Position numbers and translations under genes: made by a program
Assembly (NCBI RefSeq): GCF_900115475.1
Contig: NZ_FOWP01000005.1
Span: forward strand, 124,001 to 188,000
Source: Ectopseudomonas composti
GTDB lineage: Bacteria; Pseudomonadota; Gammaproteobacteria; Pseudomonadales; Pseudomonadaceae
Reading direction: 5' to 3'
DNA: 64,000 nucleotides
The notes under the pieces: generated by a model
The model's input: the letters and a program-made list of their open reading frames with translations, nothing else
What the model was told of the DNA's origin: nothing
The model's database searches: none
Part shown: positions 17,002-33,093 of the stretch, piece by piece
Layout: every line of letters begins with the position of its first letter
Position numbering within the stretch: the first letter of the stretch is position 1

Positions 17002-17646
17002 TTAGACCGAGCGACGCAGTATCAACAGATGGCGTTGGCCTTGGCAACCGGGAACCCGCAGCACATGCGTGGCACTGAGACGGAAGTCCGCCGGCAGCGC
17101 CTGCAGCTCGTCATCCGGGTGCACGCCCTTCATCGCCAGCCAGTGGGTGTCGGCATTACCGAGGTGGCGCGTCCAGTTGCTGAAGTCTTCCAGACTGCTG
17201 AAAGCCCGCGAGCTGATGCCATCGAAGGGTTGCTCTGGTCGATACGCTTCGACCCGGTTGTGGACAACCTCGAGGTTGGCGAGTTTCAGCTCCAGCTTCA
17301 CCTGGACGAGAAAACGGGTCTTCTTGCCGTTGGAATCGAGCAGGGTGAAGTGGCGCTCAGGGAACATGATCGCCAGCGGAACGCCAGGCATGCCGCCACC
17401 ACTGCCGACGTCCAGCCAGTTATCCCCAAGCTCGGCCACGAACGGCACCACCGACAGGCTGTCGAGCAGATGGCGCGACACCATCTCGTCGGGGTCACGC
17501 ACGGCGGTGAGGTTGTAGGCCTTGTTCCACTTGATCAGCAGGCCCAGATAGGCAAGTAGCTGTTCCTGCTGCTGCGCGCTGAGCTCGATGCCGAGTTCGC
17601 GGGCGCCCTGGATCAGTTCTTCGGCGTGACGCTGAGTAACCGACAT
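17002..17646 (-). CDS. rsmG: 16S rRNA (guanine527-N7)-methyltransferase
   Basis: A 214-residue SAM-dependent methyltransferase (GidB). The SAM motif [16 protein letters not shown], the preceding [16 protein letters not shown] and HLLDSL, and the catalytic-region [11 protein letters not shown] are all present. It modifies G527 in the 530 loop of 16S rRNA. Its start codon overlaps the mnmG stop by one base (TGATG), and parA follows after 11 bases. Confidence 0.98.
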
Positions 17647-19541
17647 CAGGCGCTCTGCTCCAGCTTTTGACCGGCACTACGCTTCTTCAGGTGAATCAGC
17701 AGCAGGGAAATGGCCGCAGGCGTCACGCCAGGGATACGCCCAGCCTGGCCGAGCGTGGCCGGGCGGGTGTTGCCCAGCTTGAACTGGATCTCCTTGGACA
17801 GGCCGGAAATACCGTTGTAGTCCAGATCCTCTGGCAGCTTGGTGTCCTCGCTGGCACGCAGCTTGGCGATCTCGTCCTGTTGGCGGTCGATGTAACCGGC
17901 GTACTTGGTCTTGATCTCGACCTGTTCGGCCACCTGGTTATCCACAGCCGGCGCCTCGGTCAGTTCGGCCAGGGTGGCGTAGTCGATCTCTGGACGGGCC
18001 AGCAGATTGAGCAGGTTGTATTCGTGAGCCAACGGCGTGCCGAAGCGCGCCGCAATGGCATCTCCCTGCGGCGTACCCGGGCGCACCCAGGTGCTCTTCA
18101 GACGCTGTTCTTCCTGCACGATACCTTCACGCTTGGCCTCGAAGGCGGCCCAGCGCTCGTCATCGATCAGGCCCAGCTCACGACCCTTCGCGGTCAGGCG
18201 CAGGTCGGCGTTGTCCTCACGCAGGATCAGCCGGTATTCGGCGCGCGAGGTGAACATGCGGTACGGCTCCTGGGTACCCAGAGTAATCAGGTCGTCGACC
18301 AGTACGCCGATGTAGGCCTCGTCACGACGTGGGCACCAGGCCTCTTTGCCTTGCGCACGCAGTGCGGCGTTGCAGCCCGCCAGCAAGCCCTGGGCACCGG
18401 CTTCTTCGTAGCCGGTGGTGCCGTTGATCTGGCCGGCGAAGAACAGGCCGCCGATGACCTTGGTCTCGAGGCTGTATTTCAGGTCGCGCGGGTCGAAGTA
18501 GTCGTATTCGATGGCATAGCCAGGACGCACGATATGGGCGTTCTCCATGCCGCGAATGCTGCGCACGATCTGCAACTGCACGTCGAATGGCAGCGAGGTG
18601 GAAATGCCGTTGGGGTACAGCTCATGCGTCGTGAGCCCTTCAGGCTCGATGAACACCTGGTGGCTGTCCTTGTCGGCGAAGCGGTGGATCTTGTCCTCGA
18701 TCGACGGGCAGTAGCGCGGGCCAACGCCTTCGATCACCCCGGAGTACATCGGCGAGCGGTCGAGGTTAGCGGCAATGATTTCGTGAGTGCGCGCGTTGGT
18801 GTGGGTGATCCAGCAGCTGATCTGCTTCGGCTGCTGCTCACGCTTGCCGAGAAAGGACATCAGCGGCGTTGGGGTGTCGCCTGGTTGCTCGGTCATCACC
18901 GAGAAATCCACGGAACGGCCATCGATACGCGGCGGCGTGCCGGTTTTCAGGCGACCGACGCGCAGCGGCAGCTCGCGCAGACGATGAGCCAGAGCGATGG
19001 AGGGTGGATCACCGGCGCGGCCACCGGAGTAGTTCTGCAGGCCGATGTGGATAAGTCCACCAAGGAAGGTGCCTGTGGTCAACACCACGGAGTCCGCGTG
19101 GAATCTGAGCCCCATCTGGGTAACCACGCCCTTGACCTGATCGTTTTCCACAATCAGGTCATCGGCTGACTGTTGAAAAATCCACAGGTTGGCCTGGTTT
19201 TCCAGAATCTCGCGCACCGCAGCTTTGTACAGCACGCGGTCTGCCTGTGCACGGGTGGCACGAACGGCTGGGCCCTTGCGGCTGTTGAGGATACGGAACT
19301 GGATGCCGCCCTTGTCGGTGGCGGTGGCCATGGCGCCGCCGAGTGCATCGATTTCCTTGACCAGGTGACTCTTGCCGATCCCACCGATGGCCGGGTTGCA
19401 GCTCATCTGGCCAAGGGTCTCGACATTGTGAGTGAGCAGCAGGGTCTTCACGCCCATGCGTGCTGCAGCCAGGGCTGCTTCGGTACCGGCATGACCGCCA
19501 CCGATCACGATCACGTCAAAACGGGAAGGGAAATCCACCAC
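17646..19541 (-). CDS. mnmG: tRNA uridine-5-carboxymethylaminomethyl modification enzyme MnmG
   Basis: A 631-residue FAD protein (GidA) that with MnmE modifies wobble U34 of several tRNAs. The FAD motif [16 protein letters not shown] is at the N-terminus, followed by [19 protein letters not shown] and the signature [12 protein letters not shown]. The start is a GTG at 19541 (read MVDFPSRF) with GAGGTGC just before it, matching the Pseudomonas form; an ATG further upstream would add 32 residues with no homology. A TATACT -10-like hexamer lies at 19585-19590. Confidence 0.97.
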
Positions 19542-19679: not shown

Positions 19680-20010
19680 GCCTGTCTGCCCATGAGAAAG
19701 TCGATCAGGCTTATAAAGAATAGAAAGAGAGAATTTTTATAAAGCTTGTTCTTTATGTTTATGTATAGAGACACGCATTTCTGTGGATAAGGTTCTGTAG
19801 GCCTTGCCATATCTGCTGTACAGCGAATGATAAGCCTGTGTCGATCCTGCTCGGTTCCACTGAGAAAGCTGCTGAACCACTGTGGATGGAAGTGCCAGTT
19901 ACCCACAGGGGGATTTACGCCCAGCTTTGTCATAGGGTTATGGGCAGGGTTCATGGGCGGTTTTCCACAGGGTTTATTGGCTCTGAATCCGCCTGTGGAT
20001 TATCAATAGA
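19680..20010 (+). other. oriC-like region upstream of mnmG (second origin-type sequence)
   Basis: The 487-base gap between mnmG and the LysR gene holds an AT-rich, A/G-tract stretch (about 19700-19770), then TGTGGATAA at 19782, ATGATAAGCCTGT at 19827, TGTGGATGG at 19881, TTACCCACA at 19899, TTTTCCACA at 19961 and TGTGGATTA at 19994. The first five occur at offsets 0, 45, 99, 117 and 179. The oriC next to dnaA shows the same motifs or degenerate forms at exactly these offsets. This looks like a diverged duplicate of the origin. Activity is unknown, and no coding sequence was seen. Confidence 0.7.
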
Positions 20011-20028: not shown

Positions 20029-20925
20029 TCAGATGTCGCTGGCGAACACCCTGGCATTGAGGAAATCGACCAGTGCACGCACCTTGGGCGATGGATGTTT
20101 GCTCGCTGGCCAGAGGATATTGAAGACATTGCTGCGTTTAGCGTGCATGGGCAGCACTCGACAGAGCTCGCCATTGGCCAGATAGGTATTGACCGAGAAG
20201 TCTGGCAGGCAGGCAATTCCACGGCCTTGGCGGGTGAAGCAGACCCGCGTCTCGATGTTATTGCAGATCATTGATGTTGGAAGCTGAACCTCGGGTTCAT
20301 CAGCGTTCAGCTGTAGCGGCCAAGTTTCCAGTTTGCCGCTGTGGGGAAGCCGGTAGTGCAGGCAGGTGTGTTGCCTCAGGTCGCGCGGTATCTCGGGTGT
20401 ACCGCACCGTTTTAGATACTCCGGCGAGGCAACCAGCATCAGCTCGAAAGTGCCCAGTCGCCGAGCCGATAGCCGGGAATCGCTCGGGTCACCGGTGCGA
20501 ACCACGGCATCGAAACCTTCCTCGATGACATCGACCAGGCGATCGCTGAAGTCCAGATCCAGCTCTATGTCCGGATAGGTCGCCATGAACTCGCCGAGCA
20601 CCGGCAGAACCAGAGAGCTGACCAGTGGCAGGCTGACCCGAAGACGGCCGCGGGGTGCGCTGGAGGCCTGTGAGAGTTCCTGCTCGGCTGCTTCTATTTC
20701 GGCCAGAATGCGTCGGCTTCGCTCCAGGAATAGCGTGCCTTCCGCGGTCAAGGTGACGCTGCGCGTGCTGCGGTGGAACAGGCGCACGCCAAGTTTTTCC
20801 TCGAGCCTGGCTACGCTCTTGCCGACTGCCGAAGCCGACACCCCGAGCAGTCGACCGGCGGCCACGAAGCTGCGGGTTTCGGCGACCTGCACGAACACCA
20901 TGAAGCCGTTCAGGCTGTCCATCAT
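20029..20925 (-). CDS. LysR-family transcriptional regulator
   Basis: A 298-residue LTTR. The N-terminal winged helix-turn-helix reads NGFMVFVQVAETRSFVAAGRLLGVSASAVGKSVARLE in family pattern, with the linker helix RSVTLTAEG and a C-terminal periplasmic-binding-like effector domain. GAGGTGA precedes two successive ATG codons (20925 and 20922), either of which could be used. It is divergent from the MFS gene at 21158 and two perfect inverted repeats lie between them, so it probably controls that transporter. The inducer cannot be inferred. PAO1, as I recall it, lacks this pair between gidA and trmE. Confidence 0.9.
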   Translation of the reverse strand: MMDSLNGFMVFVQVAETRSFVAAGRLLGVSASAVGKSVARLEEKLGVRLFHRSTRSVTLTAEGTLFLERSRRILAEIEAAEQELSQASSAPRGRLRVSLPLVSSLVLPVLGEFMATYPDIELDLDFSDRLVDVIEEGFDAVVRTGDPSDSRLSARRLGTFELMLVASPEYLKRCGTPEIPRDLRQHTCLHYRLPHSGKLETWPLQLNADEPEVQLPTSMICNNIETRVCFTRQGRGIACLPDFSVNTYLANGELCRVLPMHAKRSNVFNILWPASKHPSPKVRALVDFLNARVFASDI

Positions 20926-20946
20926 TCACCTCAATTGCGGACTTAT

Positions 20947-20995
20947 ATTTCCGTACTGATCGGAAATCTATCCCACTTTTTCTCTAATTAGAGAA
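20947..20995. promoter_or_regulatory. Two inverted repeats in the LysR-MFS intergenic region
   Basis: ATTTCCG (20947-20953), seven bases, then CGGAAAT (20961-20967) is a perfect interrupted palindrome of the size LysR proteins bind. TTCTCTAATTAGAGAA (20980-20995) is a perfect 16-bp palindrome 12 bases further on. Both lie just upstream of the regulator and ahead of the divergent transporter gene, so they are candidate operators. A perfect DnaA box (21128) lies nearer the MFS start. Confidence 0.55.
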
Positions 20996-21157
20996 TTCTT
21001 ATCGTCGCAGTGGTTATCTATGAACAAGGTGATTCGCTGTGATTCCGACTTTCGACTCTGCACTACCGCATCTTTGGCGACCTTCGGTTGTCAGCCTGTT
21101 ACCAGGTAGCTCGGGCTTTCTGCATGGTTATCCACAGGGTGAGATGGAGATTTCCCA

Positions 21158-22312
21158 ATGAGCTGTGCAGAGCGCCTTCCTCTGGGCGCGCTACTCGCAT
21201 TGGCCATGGGCGGATTCGTCACCATTCTTACTGAGGCGCTACCTGCCGGATTATTGCCGCAAATGGCGGAAAACCTGGTGGTTTCCGAGGTCTGGGTCGG
21301 TCAGACGGTTACGGTCTATGCTCTCGGCTCGCTGCTGGCGGCGATTCCATTGATCATTCTCACGCAGGGCATACGCCGAAGGCCTTTGTTGCTGACCGCC
21401 ATTGCTGGCTTCGCCCTGGCCAATACCGTTACGGCGTTATCCACAAGTTTCGTGCTGACGCTACTGGCACGGTTTATTGCCGGCGTTTCGGCGGGACTGC
21501 TGTGGGCGCTGGTGGCAGGTTATGCTGCGCGAATGGTGCCGGAGCATCTGAAGGGTCGCGCTATTGCGGTAGCCATGGTGGGTACGCCCTTGGCACTGTC
21601 GCTTGGTGTGCCAGCCGGTACCTGGCTGGGTGCGCTGGTGGGCTGGCGTATGTGCTTCGGCATAATGAGTGCACTTGCCTTGCTGCTGATGATCTGGGTG
21701 CGCTGGCAGGTTCCAGATTTCTCGGGGCAGGCCCACAGCAGGCGGCTGCAACTTGGCGCCGTATTGCGCCTGCCCGGTATTCGCCCGGTGCTTTTCGTGG
21801 TGCTGGCCTTCGTCCTGGCCCACAACATTCTCTATACCTATATTGCGCCGTTTCTAGCGGAGGCAGGGATGCTCGAACGCACCGACCTGGTGTTGCTGAT
21901 ATTCGGTCTGGCATCGCTGTTGGGGATCTGGATCGTCGGGGTATTGATCGACCGACATCTACGACGCATGACACTGGCCTGCATCTGGTTGTTCGCCATT
22001 GCGGCCACTGCCTTGGCGCTCGGGGGCGAGAGTCCACTGGTGATCTATATCGCCGTCGGCATCTGGGGCCTGGCTTTCGGTGGCGTGCCCACGTTGTTCC
22101 AAACCGCGCTGGCTAAGAGTACAGGGGAGTCCGCAGATGTCGCTCAGGCGATGCTGGTAACCGCCTGGAATATGGCGATCGCCGGTGGCGGTATTTTCGG
22201 CGGGGTTCTGCTCGAACGCTTGGGTGTTGGCGCTTTTTCACCCGCTCTGCTGGTCTTGCTGCTGGCAACGCTGCTGGTTGTCACTTGCTCCAGGCGACAT
22301 GGCTTCGTCTGA
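21158..22312 (+). CDS. MFS efflux transporter (sugar/drug exporter type)
   Basis: A 384-residue major facilitator protein with about twelve hydrophobic segments. TEALPAGLLPQMAENL near the first helix and the antiporter-like segment ARFIAGVSAGLLWALVAGYAARMVPEHLKGRAIA are typical of the AraJ/Bcr-like DHA1 exporters. The substrate is unknown. The divergent LysR gene is probably its regulator. A perfect DnaA box lies in the coding sequence at 21437. Length is normal for the family. Confidence 0.87.
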   Translation: MSCAERLPLGALLALAMGGFVTILTEALPAGLLPQMAENLVVSEVWVGQTVTVYALGSLLAAIPLIILTQGIRRRPLLLTAIAGFALANTVTALSTSFVLTLLARFIAGVSAGLLWALVAGYAARMVPEHLKGRAIAVAMVGTPLALSLGVPAGTWLGALVGWRMCFGIMSALALLLMIWVRWQVPDFSGQAHSRRLQLGAVLRLPGIRPVLFVVLAFVLAHNILYTYIAPFLAEAGMLERTDLVLLIFGLASLLGIWIVGVLIDRHLRRMTLACIWLFAIAATALALGGESPLVIYIAVGIWGLAFGGVPTLFQTALAKSTGESADVAQAMLVTAWNMAIAGGGIFGGVLLERLGVGAFSPALLVLLLATLLVVTCSRRHGFV

Positions 22313-26504: not shown

Positions 26505-26932
26505 AACCAACCTTATTCTCCAGATAGAAATAGAAAGAAGGAAAAGGGTTTAAGGCTCTTTTTCTATGTTTATGTTGATTAGCAAGGCCGGCAGCTGTGG
26601 ACAACCCTCTGTTAGCCGCGCACTGATTGCTTGAGCGGTGATGATAAGCCTGTCCAAAAGACGTGTGGCGGCTGTGTACCTCCTGGATACAGTCTGAGGA
26701 TGAAACGCGGGGTTACCCACAGCCTGGTTATCCGCCCATTCGTCCCCAGGCTTTTGCAGAGGCTTATCGGGCGCTTATCCACAAGGTTTATGGTTTGCCT
26801 GATAAGCCTGATGAATGTAACTAAGGCTTTGATTTTACTTGGCCATCTAACCGCTGTTGTGTGGATAACTCGGTCGTTGACCGTTACAATGGCGGCTGTT
26901 TTTTGCATCGCCGCCTGGATAGGGGATAGTCA
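26505..26932 (+). other. oriC: Chromosomal replication origin oriC
   Basis: The gap between rpmH and dnaA starts with an AT-rich A/G-tract and T-rich stretch (26510-26590), a likely unwinding element, then TGTGGACAA (26596), ATGATAAGCCTGT (26641), TGAGGATGA (26695), TTACCCACA (26713), a perfect TTATCCACA (26775) and a perfect TGTGGATAA (26860). The last lies just ahead of dnaA and may serve autoregulation. The location is the standard Pseudomonas oriC. No gene is seen in it. Confidence 0.93.
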
Positions 26933-28423
26933 GTGTCAGTGGAACTATGGCAGCAATGCGTCGAGCTTCTGCGCGATGAGTTGCCGGCCCAGCAATTCAA
27001 CACCTGGATCCGTCCTCTGCAGGTCGAAGCCGAAGGCGACGAGCTGCGCGTGTATGCGCCGAATCGTTTTGTACTCGATTGGGTCAACGAGAAATACCTG
27101 AGCCGTTTGCTCGAGTTGCTCGGTGAGCGCGCCGGCGGCCTGGTCCCTGCGCTTTCCTTATTAATAGGCAGCAAACGTGCAGCGACTGCCCGTGTTGCGC
27201 CAACGGCGCCGCTGCCTGCTGCTGCACGCGCTGCTCAGGTTCAGGCTGCAGCTTCTGTCAGCAAACCGCTTCCGCCACCAGTACAGGAAGAACCGTCGCG
27301 AGCCAGCTTCGACTCCATGGCCGGCTCCGCACCGCAAGCACCGACTCCAGCCGTAGCGCCACGCACCGAACGTACCGTGCAGGTCGAAGGTGGCCTCAAG
27401 CACACCAGCTACCTCAATCGCACCTTTACCTTCGACAACTTTGTCGAGGGCAAGTCGAACCAGTTGGCCCGCGCAGCGGCCTGGCAGGTAGCCGACAATC
27501 CCAAGCACGGTTACAACCCGCTGTTCCTTTATGGTGGCGTCGGCCTGGGCAAGACCCACTTGATGCATGCAGTGGGTAACCACCTGCTGGCGAAGAATCC
27601 CAACGCCAAGGTGGTCTATCTGCACTCCGAGCGTTTCGTCGCCGACATGGTCAAGGCACTGCAGCTCAACGCCATCAACGAGTTCAAGCGCTTCTATCGT
27701 TCAGTAGACGCGCTGCTGATCGACGATATCCAGTTCTTCGCCAAGAAGGAGCGCTCCCAGGAGGAGTTTTTCCACACCTTCAACGCGCTGCTCGAAGGCG
27801 GCCAGCAGGTGATTCTTACCAGCGACCGCTATCCTAAGGAGATCGAAGGCCTGGAAGAGCGCCTGAAGTCGCGCTTCGGCTGGGGCTTGACCGTTGCAGT
27901 CGAGCCGCCGGAGCTGGAAACCCGTGTGGCGATCCTGATGAAGAAGGCCGATCAGGCCAAGGTCGATCTGCCGCACGATGCTGCGTTCTTCATCGCCCAG
28001 CGTATTCGCTCCAACGTGCGTGAGTTGGAGGGGGCGCTGAAACGGGTGATCGCTCACTCGCACTTCATGGGCCGCGATATCACCATCGAGCTGATTCGCG
28101 AATCGCTCAAGGACCTGCTGGCTCTGCAGGATAAGTTGGTCAGCATCGATAATATTCAGCGCACCACCGCTGAGTACTACAAGATCAAGATCACCGATCT
28201 GCTGTCCAAGCGTCGCTCCCGTTCGATTGCCAGGCCGCGTCAGGTGGCCATGGCATTGTCGAAGGAATTGACCAACCACAGCCTGCCGGAAATCGGTGTG
28301 GCCTTCGGCGGGCGCGATCACACCACGGTGTTGCACGCTTGCCGTAAGATTGCTGAACTTAGGGGATCCGACGCGGACATCCGCGAGGACTATAAGAACC
28401 TGCTGCGCACCCTGACTACCTGA
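26933..28423 (+). CDS. dnaA: Chromosomal replication initiator protein DnaA
   Basis: A 496-residue initiator. Domain I ([20 protein letters not shown]) is followed by a proline/alanine-rich linker at about 85-145, an AAA+ domain with Walker A GGVGLGKT at 201-208 and Walker [10 protein letters not shown], and a C-terminal helix-turn-helix with [15 protein letters not shown]. The start is GTG at 26933, with GGGGA upstream, as in other pseudomonads. It opens dnaA-dnaN-recF-gyrB. Confidence 0.99.

Positions 28424-29565: not shown

Positions 29566-33093
<3,528 letters not shown>

What the first reader, a model, noticed from the sequence alone, without database searches (positions are those of the whole stretch)
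19680..20010. Second oriC-like region upstream of mnmG with spacing identical to the dnaA-proximal oriC
Five motifs occur at offsets 0, 45, 99, 117 and 179 in both regions: TGTGGATAA/TGTGGACAA, ATGATAAGCCTGT in both, TGTGGATGG/TGAGGATGA, TTACCCACA in both, TTTTCCACA/TTATCCACA. Both are preceded by a similar AT-rich tract with GAATAGAAAG-like purines and TATGTTTATG 28-31 bases before the first box. The exact spacing of degenerate motifs argues for a duplication under constraint for DnaA-DNA geometry, not chance. I recall that two autonomously replicating origin fragments have been described in Pseudomonas, so it may be known for the genus; the single-base spacing match is what I see here.
Basis: partly seen in the sequence, partly recalled or inferred. 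Interest (0 to 1): 0.75.

Follow-up and report, generated by a model that had tools for sequence, protein, structure and literature searches.

The report
Two paired replication origins in Pseudomonas
This bacterium's chromosome carries two copies of the DNA signal where chromosome copying starts, 7 kb apart with binding sites in exactly the same spacing, and in this species group the copy usually regarded as the spare looks the better preserved.

Summary
The mnmG-side element (A, first box 19782) and the dnaA-side element (B, 26596) share boxes at 0/99/117/179 and 103/188 identical bases in register. In 57 of 59 genus genomes both copies keep this spacing with at most 3/27 box mismatches. Non-box columns match at 44% versus 25±4% when slid. 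In the family, A is found in 27 of 30 genomes and B in 21 of 24 with enough upstream DNA. A tree mostly separates A from B, so the duplication is old.

E. coli keeps oriC at the mnmG position. The profile of Pseudomonas B copies detects E. coli oriC (23.6 bits); the A profile does not. In the window's P. mendocina-type clade B drifts faster than A (one pair excepted), and strand skews lean weakly towards A as start site (grouping chosen after seeing raw skews). That hand-over is suggestive, not shown.

Two P. aeruginosa origin fragments are already in print (citations seen). DnaA binding and origin activity are untested. Verdict: new variant of a known kind.

The parts
19707..19781 (+). Copy A, AT-rich tract (putative unwinding element) between mnmG and the first box
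   Evidence: 72% AT against 38% for the window; the most AT-rich 60-mer of the window starts at 19712 (78%); conserved across the genus
19782..19790 (-). Copy A, box at 0 (R1-like), perfect TTATCCACA on the minus strand
19827..19839 (+). Copy A, ATGATAAGCCTGT at +45, not a DnaA box
   Evidence: form special to the window's lineage
19881..19889 (-). Copy A, box-like site at +99 (TGTGGATGG)
   Evidence: genus consensus
19899..19907 (+). Copy A, box at +117 (TTACCCACA)
19961..19969 (+). Copy A, box at +179 (TTTTCCACA, R4-like)
26521..26595 (+). Copy B, AT-rich tract on the rpmH side of the first box
   Evidence: 61% AT; 60-mer from 26522 is 72% AT, third in the window
26596..26604 (-). Copy B, box at 0 (TGTGGACAA, one mismatch)
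26641..26653 (+). Copy B, ATGATAAGCCTGT at +45
26695..26703 (-). Copy B, box-like site at +99 (TGAGGATGA)
26713..26721 (+). Copy B, box at +117 (TTACCCACA)
26775..26783 (+). Copy B, box at +179 (perfect TTATCCACA)
26860..26868 (-). Further perfect DnaA box between copy B and dnaA
   Evidence: a perfect box at about this place is listed for the genus genomes
17646..19541 (-). mnmG (gidA)
   Evidence: NCBIfam TIGR00136, 925.8 bits, cut-off 524.85
26933..28423 (+). dnaA
   Evidence: NCBIfam TIGR00362, 624.7 bits, cut-off 343.9

Best explanation
19.68-20.01 kb is a complete oriC-type element and a paralogue of the dnaA-side oriC. Both descend from an old duplication near the base of Pseudomonadaceae, most likely of an mnmG-side origin like that of other gammaproteobacteria. 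Shown: homology, identical register, conservation of both copies over the family, an AT-rich tract beside the first box in both. Inferred: DnaA binds the 0 and +99 sites in one orientation and the +117 and +179 sites in the other, the complex needs this geometry, and it melts the AT-rich tract on the mnmG side for helicase loading. In most of the genus sample B holds the cleaner boxes. In the window's clade A is mostly the better preserved copy and may be the main start site (weakly supported).
For: Register and non-box identity; 57 of 59 genus genomes hold both in register, best triples in reversed regions 9-15 mismatches; family 27 of 30 for A, 21 of 24 for B, reversed controls none below E 0.01; separate A and B groups in the tree; mnmG-side relatives in 17 of 67 non-Pseudomonas loci, 4 of 4 Enterobacterales, 0 of 25 betaproteobacteria; B profile finds E. 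coli oriC, 23.6 bits; first-to-last box distance 180 in E. coli, 179 here; AT-rich tract of A.
Against: No binding or replication data. The A profile does not find E. coli oriC (6.8 bits, wrong strand) and the Enterobacterales hits come from the B or joint profile only. Class sample: 3 of 80 stretches match, two on the expected mnmG side, and 2 of these were too short. Three family genomes lack A and three lack B. Some family copies fall outside the two main groups of the tree, and two A copies group with a B copy. A carries 1-3 box mismatches in all 59 genus genomes while B is perfect in 42. On main-start-site: G012 with L341 has B as conserved as A, and a bias of one KOPS word between the copies points to B in most genomes.
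Confidence: 0.75

Rival explanations
1. A is no longer an origin. It is kept as a DnaA-titration or DnaA-reactivation locus (datA or DARS type, recalled) or as a regulator of mnmG, and B alone starts replication.
For: A has imperfect boxes in all 59 genus genomes while B is perfect in 42. DnaA boxes are dense around both copies. Held papers place the characterised P. aeruginosa and P. putida oriC at the dnaA side (passages).
Against: A keeps the AT-rich tract in register and highly conserved, which mere titration should not need. In the window's clade A drifts more slowly than B.
Confidence: 0.3
2. A and B act together as one bipartite origin, looped by DnaA, as in B. subtilis or H. pylori.
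For: Two box clusters near dnaA in the same genome, both kept in 57 of 59 genomes; bipartite origins are described in PMC4403523 (passage).
Against: Each copy has its own AT-rich tract and full box set. The distance between the copies varies, spans from 4.9 to 13.5 kb in 59 genomes.
Confidence: 0.1
3. The shared spacing is chance or convergence on DnaA geometry without common descent.
For: DnaA boxes are common in this region: 16 TTWTNCACA in the window, 1.55 expected.
Against: Shuffles, slid controls and reversed controls fall far short, and non-box columns match too.
Confidence: 0.02

Closest known systems
Two putative chromosomal origins of Pseudomonas aeruginosa (Yee and Smith 1990; Smith et al. 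1991; Jiang et al. 2006; seen only as citations in PMC4403523 and PMC3642087)
   Same: Two origin-like fragments in one Pseudomonas chromosome, described there as autonomously replicating elements (passage).
   Different: The papers are not held, so whether their second element is the mnmG-side copy was not verified. The shared register, its spread over the genus and a hand-over between copies are not stated in the passages I saw.
Escherichia coli oriC (between mioC and mnmG)
   Same: Same position and orientation as copy A: mnmG, AT-rich tract, first box, last box 180 bases on (179 here). The Pseudomonas B profile aligns to it over model positions 14-264.
   Different: Inner boxes differ (+55 and +106 in E. 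coli, +99 and +117 here). The A profile does not find it. E. coli was examined in one record only.
Bipartite origins of Bacillus subtilis and Helicobacter pylori
   Same: Two DnaA-box clusters near dnaA.
   Different: Those are parts of one origin flanking dnaA (recalled, and PMC8203912 passage); here two full copies, one upstream of mnmG.
DoriC 10.0 remark on double predictions (PMC6323995)
   Different: Only the one next to gidA was kept there; no statement on paralogy or spacing in the passage seen.

Membership tests
Gammaproteobacterial oriC (applied to copy A) | Cluster of DnaA boxes with first and last boxes in opposite orientation at a fixed distance | tested here: met
   0/99/117/179 in 57 of 59 genus genomes at both copies; E. 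coli 0/106/180
Gammaproteobacterial oriC (applied to copy A) | AT-rich unwinding tract beside the first box | tested here: met
   72% AT, most AT-rich 60-mer of the window; melting itself not tested
Gammaproteobacterial oriC (applied to copy A) | Position beside mnmG or dnaA | tested here: met
   upstream of mnmG
Gammaproteobacterial oriC (applied to copy A) | Sequence homology to an established oriC | tested here: inconclusive
   A is homologous to B, and the B profile finds E. coli oriC (23.6 bits), but the A profile does not
Gammaproteobacterial oriC (applied to copy A) | DnaA binding, autonomous replication and initiation in the cell | not testable with these tools
   needs experiments
Gammaproteobacterial oriC (applied to copy A) | Strand-composition switch at the site | tested here: inconclusive
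   change-point best at window 2354, A fits better than B but the curve is shallow; cumulative skew minimum 17 kb left of A
Bipartite oriC (B. subtilis, H. pylori type) | Two box clusters sharing one unwinding tract (recalled) | tested here: not met
   both copies have their own AT-rich tract
datA/DARS-type DnaA-binding locus | DnaA boxes without an origin-type unwinding tract (definition recalled) | tested here: not met
   A has an AT-rich tract in register with that of B; a titration role in addition is not excluded

The most novel reading that the evidence does not exclude
Pseudomonads carry two homologous, geometry-locked origins: one at the enteric oriC position beside mnmG and a duplicate beside dnaA. 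Lineages can hand initiation from one to the other, and in the P. mendocina-type clade the start has moved to (or stayed at) the mnmG copy while the dnaA-side 'textbook' oriC decays. That would be a natural, stepwise route for oriC relocation between the mnmG and dnaA positions in gammaproteobacteria.
Probability: 0.25. Interest if true: 0.85.

Novelty: new variant of a known kind. Interest (0 to 1): 0.6.

Why it matters
Why oriC sits beside mnmG in E. coli but beside dnaA in Pseudomonas is an old question (recalled). Two paralogous origins kept in register within one genus offer a concrete path, duplication followed by differential decay, and a set of sister species in which it can be tested. 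It also warns that naming 'the' oriC by closeness to dnaA may choose the wrong copy in some Pseudomonas, which matters for growth-rate estimates from origin/terminus ratios and for origin-based vectors.

Tried and rejected
Concerted evolution of the two copies across the genus: not seen; within-genome A-B identity (100.4/189) is about the same as cross-genome (99.5/189). A local conversion at TATGTTTATG in the window's lineage was noticed but not tested.

Skew as an origin locator: of limited use. The cumulative GC-skew minimum of the 425-kb contig is 17 kb left of A, and the change-point fit is shallow (best at window 2354, residual 800.4; A 812.7; B 821.0). KOPS-like GGGCAGGG (motif recalled): 0 plus and 12 minus left of A, 2 plus and 0 minus between (one of them inside A), 6 plus and 7 minus right of B: not decisive. 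Between the copies in 59 genomes it is 38 minus to 4 plus, which points to B; about one site per genome, so perhaps one orthologous site. Interval skew over 70 spans is confounded by GC content (0.82 against 0.72 at fourfold sites) and Pseudomonas jinjuensis, outside the clade, looks the same (-0.197). The group of seven genomes was chosen after raw interval skews and B boxes had been seen, so its p value (5e-4) is not an independent test; the group of twelve includes G014, whose B has two mismatches, and G001, G043, G045 with one.

A primer printed in PMC5109545 was sought in the held loci to place the published P. aeruginosa open complex; no match, so that paper could not be tied to A or B.

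Class sample: 58 genomes were searched, 80 stretches from part of them fetched. The first scan used 44 mnmG-side and 5 dnaA-side regions, as its motif test missed the rest; the rescan of all 80 gave 3 with E<0.01, one of them weak.

Full report
Check of the observation. The five motifs are at the stated positions in both regions. In register 103 of 188 bases are identical; of the other diagonals within 40 bases either way only three exceed 62, the highest 65. The gapped local score is 46 against 10.6 +- 1.4 (maximum 17) for 1000 dinucleotide shuffles. The two regions lie in the same orientation, 6.8 kb apart: A between mnmG and a LysR-type gene, B between the rnpA/rpmH end and dnaA (rpmH named by position).

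Genus. I located mnmG and dnaA in 59 genomes of the genus, the window's own included, and took the span between them. Scoring the triple 0, +117, +179 against TTATCCACA, 57 of 59 have both copies with at most 3 of 27 mismatches. In the other two, G028 and G054, A fits and the B boxes are shifted by one to three bases or not all found. Reversed regions give best triples with 9-15 mismatches. B has 0 mismatches in 42 of 59; A has 1-3 in all 59. For the 57 in-register pairs, A-B identity is 100.4/189 within and 99.5/189 between genomes, slid controls 48 +- 7 (maximum 73); A-A is 130.6, B-B 127.1. So the copies are homologous, long separated and not homogenised.

Whole-region DNA searches show an asymmetry for this genome: A of the window finds matches in 53 of 59 genomes, B in 6 of 59, self included. 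Some A matches lie in other genomes' B copies, since several genomes gave two places.

Family and beyond. Profiles built from 57 genus pairs find A in 27 of 30 family genomes (19 genera) and B in 21 of the 24 whose dnaA upstream was long enough (6 truncated; L210 among the 21 is weak, E about 0.002). The family sample includes three members of the genus. In the order, of 25 further genomes, 7 of 25 mnmG-side and 7 of 24 dnaA-side regions match at E<0.01, some weakly; G166 and G149 have both. Reversed controls: none below 0.01. Class: 3 of 80 fetched stretches. A tree of 94 copies (53 A, 41 B) has a pure B group of 33 (support 0.84) and a pure A group of 36 (support 0.92); several family copies lie outside these, two A copies group with a B copy, and the two copies of G166 are neighbours. 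The last suggests a second duplication or a conversion there.

Link to the enteric origin. By recalled taxonomy of the titles: 4 of 4 Enterobacterales (best Lonsdalea, 7e-10, B profile), 2 of 5 Vibrionales, also Pseudidiomarina, Halomonas, Amphritea, Porticoccus; 0 of 25 betaproteobacteria; reversed controls none below 0.1. Two non-Pseudomonas loci have a match away from mnmG (L382, and L354 weakly). In E. coli the first box faces mnmG across an AT-rich tract, and first and last box are 180 bases apart. The B profile aligns to E. coli oriC over model positions 14-264 with 23.6 bits; the A profile does not. The mnmG position thus looks like the widespread one and the dnaA-side copy like the pseudomonad addition; the direction of copying is an inference from distribution.

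The window's clade. The nearest named relatives are Pseudomonas mendocina EF27 and Pseudomonas sp. 8O, 98% in MnmG; NCBI now calls P. mendocina Ectopseudomonas mendocina. In the trios G000/G008/G012 and G013/G028/G054, A identity is 0.84-0.92 and B 0.62-0.73, with B of G028 and G054 anchored on their last box; in 400 sampled pairs of 50 other genomes A and B track each other (0.736 and 0.727 overall; where A is 0.85-0.95, B is 0.86 on average). With the two named relatives, 9 of 10 pairs among five genomes show A above B; G012 with L341 does not (0.89, 0.91). Fourfold-site GC skew of the genes between the copies, minus that of flanking genes, averages -0.056 in seven clade genomes and +0.036 in twelve others; G027, in the seven, has +0.015. 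This grouping was made after raw skews had been seen. On the window's contig leading-strand genes have TA skew about 0.42 and lagging ones about 0.125; the minus-strand genes between the copies have 0.22 (yidC alone 0.42), and the inserted plus-strand gene has 0.10, which is against A as start unless that gene is a recent arrival. These facts lean towards A in this clade but rest on one or two evolutionary events and are partly confounded.

What it does. I take A to be a DnaA-dependent origin element. Shown: homology, register, conserved AT-rich tract, persistence over the family. Inferred from oriC biology: DnaA binding, melting, initiation. In most Pseudomonas it probably serves as a secondary origin or DnaA-binding reserve; in this clade it may be the main one.

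What is known. PMC4403523 (passages) says two autonomously replicating elements from P. aeruginosa were characterised in vitro, citing Yee and Smith 1990 and Smith et al. 1991, and lists Jiang et al. [quoted passage not shown] PMC3642087 (passages) places the characterised P. aeruginosa oriC next to dnaA and dnaN. PMC3056050 (passages) puts P. putida oriC between rpmH and dnaA. [quoted passage not shown] PMC7174414 (passages) lists TATAAAGCTTAWTA as a Pseudomonadaceae origin motif; its first ten bases occur in copy A and not in copy B of this window. In the listings of searches and the passages read I saw no statement of the shared register or of a hand-over; the three key papers are not held, so precedence is open.

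Verdict. Real, old and conserved; a new variant of a known kind, with an origin hand-over as the bold, testable reading.

Noticed in passing
G000 contig C7 89371-167771 (window 1-43779 and about 35 kb to its left): 23 of the 62 perfect TTATCCACA boxes of the 5.39-Mb genome lie in these 78 kb; the pattern read backwards gives 12 in the whole genome. Far denser than chance, perhaps a titration zone around the origin.
   Followed up: partly
spans of genomes G017, G036, G042, G051 and others: Several genomes with 7-10 kb between the copies hold 14-25 further boxes (at most one mismatch) there.
   Followed up: no
20029-22312: A LysR-type regulator gene and an MFS transporter gene sit directly right of copy A; the span is 7.5 kb here and 5.3 kb in the near relative G012. 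Span lengths of 4.9-13.5 kb in 59 genomes suggest an insertion hot spot beside A.
   Followed up: no
L221 and L243 (genome G166): A genome of another family in the order has both copies, and they group together in the tree: an independent duplication or a conversion.
   Followed up: no
29987-30000 and 30617-30630: Two parS-like palindromes GTTCCACGTGGAAC (motif recalled) right of copy B, a third on the contig left of the window.
   Followed up: no
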